DNA of 5,267 bases from Betaproteobacteria bacterium (GTDB lineage Bacteria > Pseudomonadota > Gammaproteobacteria > Burkholderiales > SG8-41). Positions 59 to 5,045 of this stretch are shown one piece after another (within the stretch, counting starts at the first letter, position 1; each line of letters starts with the position of its first letter). The stretch lies in the NCBI GenBank assembly GCA_021300125.1, contig JAJTHX010000185.1, forward strand, positions 1 to 5,267, given 5' to 3'. Below the pieces are notes generated by a model. It was not told the DNA's origin and did no database searches. It saw only the letters and a list, made by a program, of their open reading frames with translations. The position numbers were made by a program, and so were the translations under genes.

Positions 59-775
59 CTAACACTTCACCTGCTGCTTGCAAAATTGCGCCAGCGGACT
101 CACCGTGGCGCGATTGCCGACCCGCTGCCGTGCCTTGCTGCCGCCGTGTTCCAGGGCAAGGCGCATCTCGAACTTGCTGAAGAACTGGTTGAACATTTCG
201 CCGCCGAGCGTGCCGGTGGCATGGAGCTGGCCGGTGGCCGCGTCGTAGTCGAGCAGGATCGCCGACAGCGGTTGTGGCGCCGGGCCGCCCATCACCATTG
301 CGCCGGCCGCAGGATCGTATTCGCTGTGTTCGGAGCAGCAGTGGATCATGTTGAGGCGGCCACCCTGCGGCGCAGTCGATCGCTCGCGGTAACTGATGAA
401 ACTGATCTGCCGCGTCGGATAGGTCAGCTGGTGCGAGCAGATCGCGGAGTAGGCGACGATCGCGCGCTGCGGTCCGACGCCGCCCGGCCACTGGTAGGTG
501 CCGCCATCGCGGGTCTTCAGCGCCACGTTCTGCGGCGTCGGCTTGCCCAGGTTGAGCAGGAAGCAGGGTGTGGCTTCGAAGGGGTAATGGAAAACGTAGT
601 TCTCGCCGACCGCGAGTTGTTTGGCCAGCAGCGGGCGGCCGGTGCTGTCGGTGAGCAGCGTGCGCTCATAGGCGCGCGGACGCACTTCGGCGCTGGCCAG
701 TGCTTCCACGCTGAAGCCGAGGCCCGAGGCGGCGCAGCTTGAAGCGCATAAACCGATGAAGTCGCGGCGTTCCAT
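59..775 (-). CDS. Exported Rieske [2Fe-2S] protein
   Basis: This 238-residue protein begins MERRDFIGLCASSC, a twin-arginine-like signal (Arg-Arg-Asp-Phe-Ile-Gly) followed by a hydrophobic stretch that may be cleaved or act as an anchor. The cluster ligands are visible as CSH (Cys113, His115) and CSEH (Cys147, His150), followed by SEYDPAAG and the Pro loop GGPAPQPL (163-170), as in bc1-type Rieske proteins. The second Cys of each box, which forms the disulfide in bc1 proteins (CTHLGC, CPCHGS), is absent: box I reads CSHQLTY, and Glu149 fills the box II position. An extra Cys146 precedes the ligand Cys147. The 31 residues between boxes are longer than in many small Rieske proteins. Two Cys lie near the C-terminus (FCKQQVKC). 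It probably transfers electrons in the periplasm or at the membrane; the partner is unknown. Its promoter-like upstream gap suggests separate expression, and a role with copper is not shown. Confidence 0.88.
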   Translation of the reverse strand: MERRDFIGLCASSCAASGLGFSVEALASAEVRPRAYERTLLTDSTGRPLLAKQLAVGENYVFHYPFEATPCFLLNLGKPTPQNVALKTRDGGTYQWPGGVGPQRAIVAYSAICSHQLTYPTRQISFISYRERSTAPQGGRLNMIHCCSEHSEYDPAAGAMVMGGPAPQPLSAILLDYDAATGQLHATGTLGGEMFNQFFSKFEMRLALEHGGSKARQRVGNRATVSPLAQFCKQQVKC

Positions 776-877: not shown

Positions 878-1219
878 TCACGGTGCGGTTTCGATACGGG
901 TGACGATATAGGCGCCGCGATCGTGTATCGCGGAGAACTTCACCTTGTCGCCGGGCTTGACGCGATCGAGCAGCGCCGGGTCGGCGGTCTGGAAGACCAT
1001 GGTCATCGGCGGCATTTTCAGGCTCGGGATCGGGCCGTGGCGGATGGTGATCTTTTTCGCATCGCGATCGACACGGCGGATTTCGCCGTCGGCCAGCTCG
1101 CCGGCCGCGGTTGCCTGGGACGGGTGATGCGCGGCGTGTTCGTCCGCGGGTTTTTGCGCGACCGCGGGCGCGGCTGCGCCCAGGGCTGTCAGCATCATCA
1201 GCAGCAGTGCAGGTTTCAT
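878..1219 (-). CDS. CusF-like periplasmic copper-binding chaperone
   Basis: This 113-residue protein has a signal peptide (1-21, cleavage after Ala-Val-Ala), a His-containing linker (EHAAHHPS, 27-34) and a small OB-fold domain (about 43-111). CusF proteins bind Cu(I)/Ag(I) and hand it to the CusCBA pump. The E. coli ligands His36, Trp44, Met47 and Met49 correspond by spacing to His61, Met69, Met72 and Met74 in RHGPIPSLKMPPMTMVF. His and both Met ligands are kept, while the Trp that caps the metal is replaced by Met. The rest (DRVKPGDKVKFSA) is typical of the family. The start overlaps the DUF411 stop (ATGA) and has AGGAGA 5 nt upstream, so it is translationally coupled to the putative selenoprotein. 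It appears to be the last gene of this transcription unit in the window, since a 102-base gap follows. Confidence 0.92.
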   Translation of the reverse strand: MKPALLLMMLTALGAAAPAVAQKPADEHAAHHPSQATAAGELADGEIRRVDRDAKKITIRHGPIPSLKMPPMTMVFQTADPALLDRVKPGDKVKFSAIHDRGAYIVTRIETAP

Positions 1220-1692
1220 CGTGGTCTCCTGGAGTCAGAGGGATTGCCGGTTGACGGGGAGCGTGCATATACCGAGGGCGGCCGGTCGCGCTGCAACAGC
1301 AGCACCTCGTAGGCCTCGCGCCGTTCGCCCTGTTCCATGCCCGGTGAACCGACAGGCATGCCGGGTACTGACAAACCGAGCGCACGTGGACGTTCGGCGA
1401 GCAGGCGGCGGATTTCACGGGCCGGCACATGCCCCTCGACGACGTAGCCCTCGACGATGGCGGTATGGCAGCTCGCAAGTTCATCCGCAATGCCGTAGCG
1501 CCGGCGTACGGCCGCGTAGTTGCGGTCCTGCACCGGCTTCACCCGGAAGCCGTTGGCGCGCAGATGGTCCATCCACGCGCCGCAGCAGCCTCATCCGGGG
1601 TCGTAATGGACTTCGATCTGGACCGCGGTCGCGGCGTGCAGGGGGGCTCCAAAAGCCGCGCAGATCGCAGCCATGAACAGCCTGCGGTTCAT
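1216..1692 (-). CDS. DUF411 metal-binding protein, putative selenoprotein (in-frame UGA = Sec34)
   Basis: Read from the ATG at 1692 this gives 158 residues with one internal TGA at codon 34. Residues 1-20 (MNRRLFMAAICAAFGAPLHA) are a signal peptide. The mature start runs VQIEVHYDPG-[TGA]-GCCGAWMDHLRANGF; DUF411 proteins normally read Asp/Ser-Pro-x-Cys-Gly-Cys-Cys-Gly-x-Trp here, so the TGA aligns with the first conserved Cys. Downstream family features are intact: SCHTAIVEGYVVEGHVP (Cys75, His76, His88), GMPVGSPGM (111-119) and the ending Val-Tyr-Ala-Arg. The frame is undamaged on both sides, and the neighbouring genes here use TGA as stop, so the code is standard. A hairpin suited to be a SECIS follows the TGA. 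The U-x-C-C arrangement places Sec at the nucleophile position of a UxxC redox or metal site (inference). The start is 4 nt after the copI stop, with AAAGGA about 10 nt upstream; the stop overlaps the CusF start. The alternative is a nonsense mutation or sequencing error; restart at Met41 would lose both signal peptide and Cys motif. Confidence 0.8.
1225..1230 (-). promoter_or_regulatory. Ribosome binding site of the CusF-like gene
   Basis: AGGAGA lies 5 nt before the ATG at 1219, within the last codons of the DUF411 gene. Its strength means the chaperone can be made even when UGA decoding in the upstream gene fails. Confidence 0.8.
1555..1581 (-). promoter_or_regulatory. SECIS-like hairpin downstream of the UGA
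   Basis: In the mRNA, GGCGCGUGGAUG pairs with CAUCUGCGCGCC around the loop GAC: 12 consecutive pairs, of which two (U-G and G-U) are wobbles. The hairpin begins 10 nt after the UGA and its loop is 22-24 nt downstream, close to the roughly 19-22 nt of the E. coli fdhF element. Opening the closing G-C pair gives GGACC, with G in the first two loop positions as bacterial SECIS elements usually have. It lies within codons for Gly38-Ala46. It is suggestive only: GC-rich DNA forms such stems by chance, and I see no bulged U of the E. coli type. Confidence 0.6.
1591..1593 (-). other. In-frame UGA, candidate selenocysteine codon
   Basis: TGA sits between GGA (Gly33) and GGC (Gly35) in the DUF411 frame, at the place of the first Cys of the family's CGCC motif. 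Cys codons TGC and TGT differ from TGA by one base, so mutation is possible. However, the otherwise intact gene and the hairpin just downstream favour recoding. Confidence 0.75.
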
Positions 1693-1696
1693 GGTT

Positions 1697-2200
1697 TCAT
1701 TTTCCTTTGATGCTCAGACGGCCCACCATGCCGGCCTCGAAATGTCCGGGCAGCAGGCAGCCGAAATGGAATTCACCCGCCTTGGTGAACTGCCAGACGA
1801 TGGTTTCGGTCTTGCCCGGCGGGACATGGGCCATGTAGGGCTCGTCGTGCTCCATGTTCGGGAACTTTTTCATCAGCTCGGCGTGTTCCTTCAGCTCCGC
1901 CATCGTGCCGAGCACGAATTCGTGCATGGCCTTGCCCGAGTTGCGGACCACGAAGCGCACTGTTTCGCCCTGGCTGACGCTGATCGAGTCCGGCGTGAAG
2001 CGCATCCGGTCGCTCATGTCGACATTGATGGTGCGGGTGGCGCGTTTCGGGTCGCCTTGGCGACCGAAGGTTTTTTCCTCGGTGCTGATTGCCGCCGGCT
2101 TGGCGCCGGCGGGTTTGCGGTGCGCTTCATGGGCATGGGCGGTGAAGCCCGTGGCCGTGGCGAAGATCGCCGCGACCAGTGCTGCGTATTGCGTGTTCAT
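1697..2200 (-). CDS. copI: Periplasmic cupredoxin, CopI-like copper-resistance protein
   Basis: This 167-residue protein is a single-domain blue-copper protein. Residues 1-23 form a signal peptide with likely cleavage after Ala-His-Ala, leaving a His-rich mature N-terminus (HEAHRKP). The cupredoxin fold spans about 55-165. Type 1 copper ligands are visible: His93 in MHEF, then Cys148, His153 and Met158 in the C-terminal loop CLLPGHFEAGM. The segment at 104-127, rich in His, Met and Glu, sits between the two ligand regions. The pattern fits the copper-inducible cuproprotein CopI known from Rubrivivax and relatives, which protects the periplasm against Cu(I); the symbol rests on that resemblance alone. 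The ribosome binding site GGAGAA (2213-2208) is 7 nt from the ATG. The gene follows the oxidase by 21 bases, and its TGA lies 4 bases before the DUF411 start, so they are probably co-transcribed. It could donate or accept electrons for the oxidase or simply sequester copper. Confidence 0.9.
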   Translation of the reverse strand: MNTQYAALVAAIFATATGFTAHAHEAHRKPAGAKPAAISTEEKTFGRQGDPKRATRTINVDMSDRMRFTPDSISVSQGETVRFVVRNSGKAMHEFVLGTMAELKEHAELMKKFPNMEHDEPYMAHVPPGKTETIVWQFTKAGEFHFGCLLPGHFEAGMVGRLSIKGK

Positions 2201-2221: not shown

Positions 2222-3613
2222 TCAGTGTTTGTGGCCGGGGGCGGGCTTCACCGCACGCAGCTCGCGTTCGGGGGTTGATGCGGCGCGGGGGCGCTGCGCA
2301 GCTGGCGCGGCGGGAGCGGGCGGCAGTGGGCCGTTCCATTCCCGCGACACGGTGCCGGGCGGATGCTGGAACCAGCCCGGATCCTTGTAGTCGTTGCGTG
2401 CGAGTCCGTCGCGCACCTTGACCACGCTGAACATGCCGCCCATTTCCAGCGGACCGAAGGGGCCGCGTCCGGTCATCATCGGCAGGGTGTTATCCGGCAG
2501 CGGCATTTCCATCTCACCCATGTCGGCCATGCCGCGCTCGCCCATCACCATGTAGTCGGGCACCAGCTTCATGATTTTTTCGGCCACACCGCGATGGTCC
2601 ACGCCGATCATGGTCGGCACGCCGTGGCCCATCGGGTTCATGGTGTGGTGCGACTTGTGGCAGTGGATCGCCCAGTCGCCGGGATAGATCGCATCGAACT
2701 CGAAGGCGCGCATCTGGCCAACCGCGACATCCACCGACACTTCGGGCCAGCGTGCCGACTTCGGCACCCAGCCGCCGTCGGTACCGGTGACTTCGAAGTC
2801 GTAGCCGTGCATGTGTATCGGGTGGTTGGTCATGGTCAGGTTGCCGAAGCGGATGCGCACGCGGTCCCTGGTGCGCACGACGAAGGGATCAATGCCCGGG
2901 AAGGCGCGCGAGTTCCAGCACCACAGGTTGAAGTCGAGCATGGTGTTCACGGTGGGCGTGGCCGCCCCCGGCTTGATGTCGAAGGCGTTGATCAGGAACA
3001 CGAAATCGCGGTCTACTTTCATGAAGTTCGGATTTTTCGGGTGCACCACAAAAAAGCCCATCATGCCCATCGCCATCTGCACCATCTCGTCGGCGTGCGG
3101 GTGATACATGAAGGTGCCCGACTTCTTCATCTCGAATTCGTAGACGAAGGTCTTGCCCACCGGGATCTGCGGCTGGGTCAGGCCGCCGACGCCGTCCATG
3201 CCGTTGGGCAGCAGGATGCCGTGCCAGTGGATGGTGGTGTGTTCGGGCAGCTTGTTGGTGACGAAAATCCTGACCTTGTCGCCCTCGACGCATTCGATGG
3301 TCGGCCCTGGCGACTGCCCGTTGTAGCCCCACAGGTGGGCGGTCATGCCCGGGGCGATCTGGCGGCGTACCGGCTCGGCGACCAGGTGGAACTCCTTCCA
3401 GCCGTTGTTCATGCGCCAGGGCAGGGTCCAGCCGTTGATGGTCACCACCGGGTTGTAGGGCCTGCCGCTGGGCGGTGCCAGCGGTCCCTGGGTTTCGGGT
3501 TTGGTCTGCAGCGGCGCCTCGGGCACCGCACCCTGCGCGGCGCGGCTGACCGCCGCGGCGCCGAGCAATGCGGCGCCGGAGGCGGCGCGCAGGAACTGAC
3601 GTCGATTGTTCAT
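2222..3613 (-). CDS. Tat-exported two-domain multicopper oxidase
   Basis: This is a 463-residue periplasmic copper oxidase, probably oxidising Cu(I) to Cu(II). The N-terminus MNNRRQFLRAASG is a twin-arginine signal, as expected for a folded copper enzyme. All blue-oxidase copper motifs are present: HWHG (129-132) and HPH (171-173) in the first cupredoxin domain, and HPIHMHG (264-270) and HCHxxxHxxxxM (317-328) in the second. Type 1 ligands would be His264, Cys318, His323 and Met328; the eight His of 129/131, 171/173, 267/269 and 317/319 would bind the trinuclear cluster. Only the second domain has the Cys, the layout of two-domain (small laccase-type) enzymes and unlike the longer three-domain CopA/CueO. 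A Met-rich stretch (about 355-394) follows, then a Pro/Ala-rich tail ending HKH. The frame is open to an ATG at 3661, but that start lies inside the preceding gene; the ATG at 3613 has a good ribosome binding site and begins the Tat signal. Confidence 0.94.
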   Translation of the reverse strand: MNNRRQFLRAASGAALLGAAAVSRAAQGAVPEAPLQTKPETQGPLAPPSGRPYNPVVTINGWTLPWRMNNGWKEFHLVAEPVRRQIAPGMTAHLWGYNGQSPGPTIECVEGDKVRIFVTNKLPEHTTIHWHGILLPNGMDGVGGLTQPQIPVGKTFVYEFEMKKSGTFMYHPHADEMVQMAMGMMGFFVVHPKNPNFMKVDRDFVFLINAFDIKPGAATPTVNTMLDFNLWCWNSRAFPGIDPFVVRTRDRVRIRFGNLTMTNHPIHMHGYDFEVTGTDGGWVPKSARWPEVSVDVAVGQMRAFEFDAIYPGDWAIHCHKSHHTMNPMGHGVPTMIGVDHRGVAEKIMKLVPDYMVMGERGMADMGEMEMPLPDNTLPMMTGRGPFGPLEMGGMFSVVKVRDGLARNDYKDPGWFQHPPGTVSREWNGPLPPAPAAPAAQRPRAASTPERELRAVKPAPGHKH

Positions 3614-3620
3614 GATGATG

Positions 3621-3625
3621 TCCTC
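3621..3625 (-). promoter_or_regulatory. Ribosome binding site of the multicopper oxidase gene
   Basis: GAGGA lies 7 nt before the ATG at 3613 and overlaps the TGA stop (3626-3624) of the TolC-family gene. It selects the ATG that begins the Tat signal peptide over the in-frame ATG 48 bases upstream. Confidence 0.85.
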
Positions 3626-5045
3626 AATGTCCGGGCCGGGCCGCCACGGCGGCCGGCGCATGGGGTACGGCCGCGGGGGCGATGGTGCCCGGGGAGCGGC
3701 CGGTGATGGCGAACTGCAGGCTGGCGTCGGCGAGCCAGAAATCGCGCTGGGCGTTGATGGCTTCCACCACGGCGCCGACCTGCTGACGTGATTCCGCGAG
3801 CAGCTCGAACACGCTCATCAGCATGCCGTTGTAGCGCAGCAGGGTTTCCTCGCTGATGCGGGCGCGCAGCGGCACCACTTCGTCGCGGTAGTGGCGGGCG
3901 AGGTCGTACTGCGTGCGCCAGGCTTGCCAGGCCTCGCGTACTTCCGAGCGCGCCCGTACCGCGAGGTCGGCGGCACGGTTCACCGCCTGCCGGTGCAGGT
4001 GTTCGGCACGGGCGATGCGGGCGGAGCCGGAATCGAAGACGGGTATGCGCAGCTCGACTTCCCATCCGGTCTGGCGCGGTTCGCCGCTTTCGCTGTTGCG
4101 CATGTACTTGCCCTCGAGCACGCTGAACCAGCCGGTTGCGCGGGTGAGTCCGAGTTTGCGCGCCAGCGATTCCGACTCGCGCACCGCCGCCTGCAGGTCA
4201 AGGCGCTGCTGCATGGCGAGACGCTCGATATCGGTGATCTCGCGCAGCTGCGGCGGCAGCTCTTTGGGCAAATCCGGCAGGCGCTCGGGCAGGCGGAAGG
4301 TGATAGCTTCACCCCACAGGCCGAGCAGCCGGGTCAGCGCCTCGCGCTCGGTCGCGGCGGTCTGGCGCGCGCGTGCGAGCTGCGCGGTGGCTTCGGCGTA
4401 GAACGCCTGTTCGCGTGCACGGTCGAGCGCACTGAAATTGCCGACACCGGCCATGCGCCGCGCCAGCTCCGCTGCGGCCTCGGCCGCTGTCCTGACCTGC
4501 TCGGCGTAGGCAGCGGCCTGCTGTGCGGCCACCGCGCGCACCCAGGCGCGGCGGGTGTCTGCCGCCACCTGCAGGATTTCGGCTGCCACCCGGTTTTGCG
4601 CGGCGGCGAAACGCCCGCGCTCGATCTCGGTGCGCAGCGGCATCGTCAGCAGGCCCATCAGGTCGAACAGGAAGGCACGCTCATATTCGATGATGTCGGC
4701 ACGGTGCAGCCGGCCGAAGGAAAAGCCGGGATTGACCAGCCGTCCGGCCTGCACCAGATCGGCTTCGGCGATGCCGAGTTCGGCGTACCGTGCCTGCAGC
4801 CCGTGGTTATTGAGCAGGGCGATACGCACCGCGGTATCGGCCGACAGCGGCTGCGCCAGCAAGCGGTTGACTTCACCCGCGGCGCGCTCGGCTTCGGTTT
4901 CGCTGCGGATCCACGGCGCCGGCTGCTGCAGTCCGCGGCTCTGCAGCGATGCGTTGACTGCGGTGGTGCCGCCGTCGCCGGAAAATGTCGCGCAGCCACC
5001 GAGCAGGGCCAGCGCCAGCAACCCCATCAATGACCGGGCGTTCAT
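3624..5045 (-). CDS. TolC-family outer-membrane efflux lipoprotein (CusC-like)
   Basis: This 473-residue protein is the likely outer-membrane channel of a tripartite metal efflux system. Residues 1-17 form a lipoprotein signal ending in the lipobox Leu-Gly-Gly-Cys, with Cys18 the acylation site. The mature part shows the two-fold repeat of the outer membrane efflux family: long Ala/Arg/Gln-rich coiled-coil helices at about 140-240 and 345-445, and strand-like segments near 100-125 (LVNPGFSF) and 325-340 (WEVELRIPVFDSG). The motif RYNGMLMSVFELL at 404-416 matches the family's second repeat. Length is normal for the family. The start is fixed by the ATGA overlap with the upstream gene; the upstream GGGGGGCGG is only a loose Shine-Dalgarno. 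The C-terminal about 25 residues are Ala/Pro-rich. No adaptor or RND pump gene is in the window, so specificity for Cu(I)/Ag(I) is inferred from the copper genes that follow. Confidence 0.93.
   Translation of the reverse strand: MNARSLMGLLALALLGGCATFSGDGGTTAVNASLQSRGLQQPAPWIRSETEAERAAGEVNRLLAQPLSADTAVRIALLNNHGLQARYAELGIAEADLVQAGRLVNPGFSFGRLHRADIIEYERAFLFDLMGLLTMPLRTEIERGRFAAAQNRVAAEILQVAADTRRAWVRAVAAQQAAAYAEQVRTAAEAAAELARRMAGVGNFSALDRAREQAFYAEATAQLARARQTAATEREALTRLLGLWGEAITFRLPERLPDLPKELPPQLREITDIERLAMQQRLDLQAAVRESESLARKLGLTRATGWFSVLEGKYMRNSESGEPRQTGWEVELRIPVFDSGSARIARAEHLHRQAVNRAADLAVRARSEVREAWQAWRTQYDLARHYRDEVVPLRARISEETLLRYNGMLMSVFELLAESRQQVGAVVEAINAQRDFWLADASLQFAITGRSPGTIAPAAVPHAPAAVAARPGH

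What the first reader, a model, noticed from the sequence alone, without database searches (positions are those of the whole stretch)
1216..1692. Candidate selenocysteine-containing DUF411 protein in a copper-resistance operon
An in-frame TGA replaces precisely the first Cys of the family's CGCC motif (DPG-[TGA]-GCCGAW). A complete signal peptide lies upstream and a full, intact DUF411 domain downstream. A Sec/Cys swap at a functional Cys in an otherwise undamaged frame is the classic signature of a selenoprotein. I do not recall with certainty whether Sec-DUF411 proteins have been described, so novelty is unverified. Sec at the first position of U-x-C-C would give a selenol/thiol pair beside a second Cys, changing redox potential and Cu(I) affinity.
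Basis: partly seen in the sequence, partly recalled or inferred. Interest (0 to 1): 0.95.

Follow-up and report, generated by a model that had tools for sequence, protein, structure and literature searches.

The report
Selenocysteine version of copper protein CopG
A bacterial copper-resistance gene of the CopG (DUF411) family has a UGA codon exactly where its relatives have a key cysteine; this UGA is likely read as selenocysteine, which would make the product a selenium-containing copper protein of a kind missing from the two selenoprotein catalogues read here.

Summary
On the minus strand (1692-1216) a 158-codon CopG/DUF411 gene has one in-frame TGA (1593-1591) at the first Cys of the invariant CGCC motif; the frame then runs intact to a TGA overlapping the ATG of cusF.

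The same codon is TGA in 68 of 175 distinct DUF411 genes compared (window included), from one betaproteobacterial family, Rokubacteria and Acidobacteria; the other 107 have TGC or TGT. Of 50 genomes searched, selA is present in 20 of 21 with the TGA form and 5 of 29 with the Cys form.

A hairpin right after the TGA fits the published bacterial SECIS rule in 43 of 68 TGA genes (9.0 expected from synonymous shuffles) and 6 of 107 Cys genes (5.3 expected). One stem pair covaries clearly. The modelled read-through protein matches CopG (6WIS), placing the predicted Sec first in the CxCC copper/thioredoxin motif.

DUF411 is absent from the 119-entry 2026 selenoprotein catalogue. I conclude: very probably a new selenoprotein family. 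Untested: Sec incorporation itself, the copper chemistry, and sel genes in the window's own host (no genome held).

The parts
1216..1692 (-). copG/DUF411 gene, 158 codons with one internal TGA; predicted selenoprotein
   Evidence: recurrence of the TGA codon in 68 of 175 genes
1591..1593 (-). internal TGA, codon 34, predicted Sec codon at the first Cys of CGCC
1555..1581 (-). SECIS-like hairpin: 12-bp stem, loop GAC at 1569-1567, 21 nt after the UGA, -19.4 kcal/mol
   Evidence: covariation
1633..1692 (-). signal-peptide-like N-terminus with NRRxF (Tat-like by eye)
   Evidence: read; no signal-peptide predictor was run
1700..1708 (-). ribosome-binding-like AAAGGAAAA upstream of the ATG
   Evidence: read
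878..1219 (-). cusF-like periplasmic copper-binding protein; its ATG overlaps the terminal TGA of copG
   Evidence: PF11604, E 7.9e-28; overlap read
1697..2200 (-). cupredoxin (CopI-like), upstream neighbour
   Evidence: PF13473, PF00127; CopI models below their cut-offs
2222..3661 (-). multicopper oxidase
   Evidence: PF07732, PF07731
3624..5045 (-). outer membrane efflux protein
   Evidence: PF02321

Best explanation
This is a copper-resistance gene of the CopG/DUF411 family whose in-frame UGA, standing exactly at the first Cys of the invariant CGCC motif, is predicted to be read as selenocysteine through SelB, tRNA-Sec and the SECIS-like hairpin just downstream, giving a likely periplasmic UGCC protein that would use its selenol as copper ligand and redox group. 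Shown here: the codon, the intact frame, the recurrence of TGA at this codon in three groups of bacteria, the hairpin and its covariation, the link with sel genes in relatives, and the CopG fold of the model. Inferred from the known bacterial Sec pathway: SelB binds the hairpin and inserts Sec (I put this step alone at about 0.93). Inferred from published CopG work, read through two other papers: CopG binds a copper cluster through CxCC and two Met and is proposed to turn Cu(I) into Cu(II). The first and last Cys of CGCC also make a thioredoxin-type CxxC, so the Sec would take the usual nucleophile position (UxxC). From general selenium chemistry (recalled), a selenolate there should bind Cu(I) and exchange electrons more readily than a thiolate.
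For: Same codon TGA in 68 of 175 distinct genes, TGC/TGT in 107; 44 of 47 genes in one betaproteobacterial family and 10 of 10 full matches in the Rokubacteria class. selA 20 of 21 v 5 of 29, selB 19 v 5, tRNA-Sec above 60 bits 18 v 6 (tests). SECIS rule 43 of 68 v 9.0 expected, Cys genes 6 of 107 v 5.3 expected; covariation. Frames intact with median dN/dS 0.15 over 111 pairs. Other metal-site residues kept in 68 of 68. CopG fold. Four other genes of the operon also end in TGA, so TGA is an ordinary stop here (read).
Against: No genome for the window's host. 25 of 68 TGA genes fail the strict SECIS rule and 9 have no qualifying contiguous hairpin; the all-clade RNAalifold consensus is weak (-2.0 kcal/mol); two of the five covariation measures do not stand out from shuffles (46/500 and 77/500). 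G018 has no selA, selB or strong tRNA-Sec; G021 lacks selB; G016 and G019 lack a strong tRNA-Sec; G244, G529, G544 and G553 lack selA over cut-off. The stem is partly dictated by the protein motif. In Rhodobacter capsulatus, mutating the Cys or Met motifs of the CopG homolog CutG left oxidase maturation intact (PMC8456105, passages), so the importance of the site is not proven.
Confidence: 0.76

Rival explanations
1. Sec is inserted, but serves thiol/selenol-disulfide exchange of a thioredoxin-like oxidoreductase (UxxC) and not copper coordination.
For: Thioredoxin-like fold; after CopG the next structural matches are thioredoxins and glutaredoxins; UxxC is the usual motif of Trx-fold selenoproteins (PMC13188914).
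Against: All other metal-site residues are kept in 68 of 68; the gene sits in a copper operon; the only solved relative by sequence is a copper-cluster protein.
Confidence: 0.14
2. The TGA is a plain nonsense mutation or sequencing error in a decaying gene.
For: Formally a stop codon in a metal-resistance gene; broken DUF411 fragments do occur in relatives (G234, G235, G254).
Against: TGA at the same codon in 68 distinct genes from separate assemblies; no other stop in their frames and dN/dS mostly far below 1 (one pair reaches 1.5).
Confidence: 0.02
3. UGA is decoded as another amino acid by a changed genetic code or suppressor tRNA.
For: Some gene calls give Trp at the site (P0042).
Against: Four neighbouring genes and copG itself end in TGA; 45 of 68 TGA genes also end in TGA; the UGA replaces Cys, never Trp, in the 107 other genes; SECIS and sel genes go with it.
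Confidence: 0.02
4. The UGA is mainly a selenium-dependent switch: without selenium only a short, inactive piece is made, and the chemistry of Sec is secondary.
For: Any Sec codon responds to selenium supply (general knowledge).
Against: No regulatory evidence; the UGA replaces exactly an invariant functional Cys.
Confidence: 0.03

Closest known systems
CopG of Pseudomonas aeruginosa (DUF411, PF04214; PDB 6WIS and 6WJE)
   Same: Sequence match over residues 25-146 (E 7.2e-36); the model fits with TM 0.93 by target length (0.73 by query length), rmsd 1.4; CGCC, CH and the two Met are kept; copper operon.
   Different: UGA, predicted Sec, at the first Cys of CGCC; a SECIS-like hairpin follows it.
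CutG of Rhodobacter capsulatus
   Same: CopG homolog beside a multicopper oxidase gene (PMC8456105, passages).
   Different: A Cys protein according to that paper's text; not a selenoprotein.
Bacterial UxxC selenoproteins with thioredoxin fold (thioredoxin, glutaredoxin, DsbG-like and others in Table 1 of PMC13188914)
   Same: Sec at the first position of a CxxC-type motif in a Trx-like fold, UGA plus bSECIS, Cys homologs.
   Different: Different family; here the motif is UGCC in a copper-cluster protein.
Metal-related selenoproteins: CopZ-like 2Fe-2S proteins, MerT, E1-E2 cation ATPase, SO_0444 Cu/Zn efflux transporter
   Same: Predicted selenoproteins tied to copper or other metal handling.
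   Different: Unrelated families; none is DUF411.

Membership tests
CopG / DUF411 (PF04214) | Profile match above the curated cut-off | tested here: met
   97.4 bits against a cut-off of 27
CopG / DUF411 (PF04214) | CxCC motif, CH motif and two conserved Met | tested here: met
   C36, C37, C75, H76, M112, M119 present; first position is UGA, predicted Sec. Strictly Cys at position 34: not met.
CopG / DUF411 (PF04214) | CopG fold | tested here: met
   model v 6WIS TM 0.93 by target length, rmsd 1.4
CopG / DUF411 (PF04214) | Binds a tetranuclear copper cluster | not testable with these tools
   needs the purified protein
Bacterial selenoproteins | In-frame UGA where homologs have Cys, and further UGA homologs | tested here: met
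   68 TGA and 107 Cys of 175
Bacterial selenoproteins | bSECIS element 16-37 nt after the UGA | tested here: met
   window: 21 nt, loop GAC, 12 bp, -19.4 kcal/mol (rule); 43 of 68 TGA genes pass
Bacterial selenoproteins | selA, selB, selC and selD in the host | not testable with these tools
   no genome of the window's host; in relatives selA 20 of 21, selB 19 of 21, tRNA-Sec 18 of 21; selD was not searched
Bacterial selenoproteins | Selenium found in the protein | not testable with these tools
   75Se labelling or mass spectrometry needed
Decaying gene | Further disabling changes or relaxed selection | tested here: not met
   no other stop in 68 frames; median dN/dS 0.15 over 111 pairs, one pair as high as 1.5

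The most novel reading that the evidence does not exclude
In these bacteria the copper cluster of CopG is bridged by a genetically encoded selenolate: Sec replaces the first Cys of the cluster-binding CxCC, making a natural selenium-copper cluster in a periplasmic Cu(I) oxidoreductase that has switched between Sec and Cys several times at one codon.
Probability: 0.4. Interest if true: 0.92.

Novelty: new variant of a known kind. Interest (0 to 1): 0.83.

Why it matters
It would add a family to the 119 families and subfamilies of the 2026 selenoprotein catalogue, and a widespread one: nearly fixed in one betaproteobacterial family (44 of 47 genes) and seen in 42 of the 91 DUF411-bearing genomes of an Acidobacteria class draw. 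Its Cys form has a solved structure with a copper cluster, so the old question of why Sec rather than Cys is used can be tested directly at a Cu(I) site with Sec/Cys pairs. It also means that such copG genes enter databases as 118-residue pieces without signal peptide or metal motif.

Tried and rejected
Rejected: pseudogene or sequencing error (recurrence; purifying selection). Genome-wide recoding of TGA (TGA ends neighbouring genes). A hairpin that is only a by-product of the protein motif: tested with synonymous-codon shuffles and Cys genes as controls. This is partly true, since pairs 17-29 and 20-26 of alignment A2 follow largely from the W-x-x-H-L codons.

Led nowhere or only limited: whole genome of the window's host (none held). 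Class draw around G002: 46 of 185 genomes have a match; of 30 loci fetched, 29 have Cys and one, G002 itself, has TGA. Order draw: 143 of 399 genomes have a match; the eight listed rows with a TGA all belong to the family of G009, and further rows were not listed. Plasmids: 3454 records match; ten were listed and the Sec site was not checked. Foldseek beyond CopG gives generic thioredoxin folds.

Papers: PMC13188914 sections 5 and 7 read whole and outline; PMC9312934 passages and its table section; PMC12013277 passages; PMC7558416 and PMC8456105 passages. The CopG structure paper (Hausrath 2020) is not held, so what I say of it comes through the last two. Searches bearing on novelty were judged from their listings, and three of them returned none; two searches looked for DUF411/CopG with copper. 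The library holds open-licence papers only, so a report elsewhere cannot be excluded. NCBIfam has no model that hits the protein at E 0.001.

Choices and dropped rows: L168 does not cover the codon. Repeats of one gene were collapsed by a 285-nt key. Only 29 of the 59 Cys loci went into the sel searches. For tRNA-Sec I set 60 bits after seeing the scores; at Rfam's own cut-off of 47 bits 38 of 50 genomes pass, many with matches scoring only 47-52 bits. In the Acidobacteria count the codon was checked for 12 of 42 TGA genomes and 18 of 49 others; the rest go by one TGA or no stop in the match, and one of the 49 (G442) is a partial match. The 41-of-42 selA tally in the betaproteobacterial family is my own cross-reading. 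The codon pools of the synonymous shuffles come from the gene itself, which is short.

Full report
Observation. On the minus strand of the window, 1692..1216 codes for a 158-residue CopG/DUF411 protein with one in-frame TGA at codon 34 (1593-1591), inside DPG-[TGA]-GCCGAW. The gene lies in a copper operon read from 5045 down to 878: outer membrane efflux protein, multicopper oxidase, cupredoxin, copG, cusF. Its terminal TGA overlaps the ATG of cusF. The efflux, oxidase, cupredoxin and cusF genes also end in TGA (read), so TGA is a normal stop in this DNA and only the internal one needs a special reading.

Recurrence. A scan of one genome per species gave 80 loci, the best of 107 relatives. At the codon aligned with residue 34, 21 have TGA and 59 have TGC or TGT. 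I then searched the GTDB family of G009 (73 genomes), the class of G017, whose kin are titled Rokubacteria (95 genomes), the class of G021, titled Acidobacteria (193 genomes), and a class draw around G002 (185 genomes), and fetched 17 more regions. The set then held 175 distinct genes: 68 TGA, 88 TGC, 19 TGT, window included. In the betaproteobacterial family 44 of 47 genes covering the site have TGA; Cys is in L118, L145 and L148. In the Rokubacteria class all 10 full matches do (an eleventh, E 4.5e-4, is spurious). In the Acidobacteria class 42 genomes show one TGA in the match and 49 none; the 12 and 18 checked at the codon all agree. In the order draw the TGA form was listed only in members of the family of G009.

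Tree. A maximum-likelihood tree of the 175 rows needs 8 changes between Sec and Cys, 4 of them forced by well-supported branches; shuffled labels need 54 on average. It puts the window in a supported clade of 40 TGA and 3 Cys rows (few columns, and many forks are unresolved). One Cys gene, L118 (the same gene as L010), sits deep inside the Sec clade and still has the hairpin (-17.5 kcal/mol), as expected of a recent Sec-to-Cys exchange. Its genome, G023, has tRNA-Sec but no selA or selB over cut-off.

Sec machinery. In 50 genomes (21 TGA; 29 of the 59 Cys): selB over cut-off 19 v 5, selA 20 v 5, tRNA-Sec above 60 bits 18 v 6 (Fisher p 2.9e-7, 4.0e-8 and 8.2e-6). At low score the selB and tRNA-Sec models match something in every genome, so only strong matches were counted. 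In the betaproteobacterial family 66 of 73 genomes have selA, and by my cross-reading 41 of the 42 with a TGA copG do. In the Acidobacteria class selA is in 39 of 42 TGA genomes and 32 of 49 others (p 0.0019). The association is one-way, as it should be: Sec needs the machinery and Cys does not. Exceptions are G018 (none of the three), G021 (no selB), G016 and G019 (no strong tRNA-Sec), and G244, G529, G544 and G553 (no selA over cut-off). Completeness of these genomes was not given, so missing contigs are only a guess. The window's host could not be tested. Its operon order is matched in eight of the 21 TGA loci (L004, L007, L008, L009, L011, L012, L014, L017), with the oxidase 66-87% and the efflux protein 42-75% identical, so a host in or near that family is likely.

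SECIS. The published bacterial rule (PMC13188914, section 5) asks for a 3-9 nt loop with a G in its first two positions, 16-37 nt from the UGA, a stem of 4-16 bp and -7.5 kcal/mol or lower. The window has loop GAC, 21 nt, 12 bp and -19.4 kcal/mol. Its 60-nt segment folds better than all 200 dinucleotide shuffles (z -3.8), but for an 81-nt segment 8 of 200 do as well. Because the motif W-x-x-H-L itself favours part of the stem, the control that counts is synonymous-codon shuffling: 43 of 68 TGA genes pass against 9.0 expected, and 6 of 107 Cys genes against 5.3. For overall folding energy the mean z is -2.37 in 22 TGA genes and -0.41 in 59 Cys genes. On 56 distinct segments 75.9% of cells pair, against 68.2% in column shuffles and at most 49.1% when slid; the covariation score is 0.171 against 0.089 (0 of 500). 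The number of pairs with double changes (46 of 500 shuffles as high) and of pair types (77 of 500) do not stand out. The clearest pair, columns 19-27, joins the first base of codon 41 (Met, Val or Ile) to the third base of codon 43, silent where that is His: G-C in 24, A-U in 23, G-U in 6, broken in 3. Among His codons the association is strong in TGA genes (p 2.5e-5) and absent in Cys genes (p 0.25). Against: 25 of 68 fail the strict rule, 9 have no qualifying contiguous hairpin, and the RNAalifold consensus over all clades is weak (-2.0 kcal/mol). These p values ignore kinship.

The frame is functional. All 68 TGA genes run 111-125 codons, counting the UGA, to the next stop. Median dN/dS is 0.15 downstream (111 pairs; highest 1.5) and 0.20 in the 14 codons upstream (84 of those pairs gave a value). 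Residues C36, C37, C75, H76, H88, M112 and M119 are kept in 68 of 68. Among the 120 best of 8000 protein hits, the nearest to the window is a 118-residue piece that begins at Met 41 (P0003, 98% identical); P0005, P0006, P0009 and P0018 are alike. P0042 has Trp at the site and runs on into a CusF domain, as a gene caller reading TGA as Trp would give (the cause is inferred).

Function. At E 0.001 the only PDB relative by sequence is CopG (6WIS, 6WJE). The predicted model, with Cys in place of Sec (pLDDT 85.4), matches it best (TM 0.93 by target and 0.73 by query length, rmsd 1.4), followed by thioredoxins and glutaredoxins. According to a review (PMC7558416, passages), CopG binds a tetranuclear copper cluster through CxCC and two Met, adds to copper resistance without oxygen, and is proposed to oxidise Cu(I) and hand copper to oxidases. 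The predicted Sec is the first residue of that motif and also the first of a CxxC-like pair (34 and 37). I commit to: Sec inserted by SelB, protein exported, selenolate used as copper ligand and redox group. Sec insertion is strongly supported; the copper role is inferred from Cys relatives, and in R. capsulatus the motifs of the homolog were dispensable for oxidase maturation (PMC8456105, passages).

Novelty. The May 2026 catalogue of 119 prokaryotic selenoprotein families and subfamilies (Table 1 of PMC13188914, read whole) and the 2022 list (PMC9312934) contain no DUF411, PF04214 or CopG. The passages of deep-Sep (PMC12013277) do not mention it. NCBIfam has no model for it. Six paper searches listed no report of it. 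The kind (bacterial UxxC selenoprotein, metal-related) is known; the family is new as far as these sources go.

Noticed in passing
L118 (same gene as L010), genome G023: A Cys codon nested deep in the Sec clade with the SECIS-like hairpin kept (-17.5 kcal/mol); the genome has tRNA-Sec but no selA or selB over cut-off. Looks like a fresh Sec-to-Cys exchange.
   Followed up: partly
G272 (L148, L149), G239 (L135, L146), G240 (L151, L155): Genomes with two DUF411 genes: one Cys and one TGA copy about 10 kb apart in G272, two TGA copies of different clades in G239 and G240.
   Followed up: partly
G234, G235 (C15), G254 (C213): Broken or frame-split DUF411 fragments in the same betaproteobacterial family.
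   Followed up: no
L145 (genome G276): A Cys copy whose motif reads CGCG: the last Cys of CGCC is Gly, in a genome that has selA.
   Followed up: no
P0042 (database protein): Trp at the Sec site and fusion into a CusF domain, as if the TGA codons were read as Trp by the gene caller; likely a misannotation.
   Followed up: no
P0004 (database protein): A 279-residue protein with two DUF411 domains in tandem.
   Followed up: no
window 59-775, minus strand: Rieske-type protein next to the operon; weak, below-cut-off matches to SoxL2 and the arsenite oxidase small subunit. Homologs, 70-73% identical, lie further away in L011, L012 and L019.
   Followed up: no
N-termini of DUF411 proteins: A Tat-like RR-x-[FLMI] pattern before the site in 34 of 68 TGA and 20 of 107 Cys genes by a crude regular expression; might mean export of a folded protein.
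   Followed up: partly
L008, L037: Metagenome bins titled Bordetella parapertussis; the genome of L008 groups with uncultured Betaproteobacteria of the Sec family, so the title looks mislabelled.
   Followed up: no
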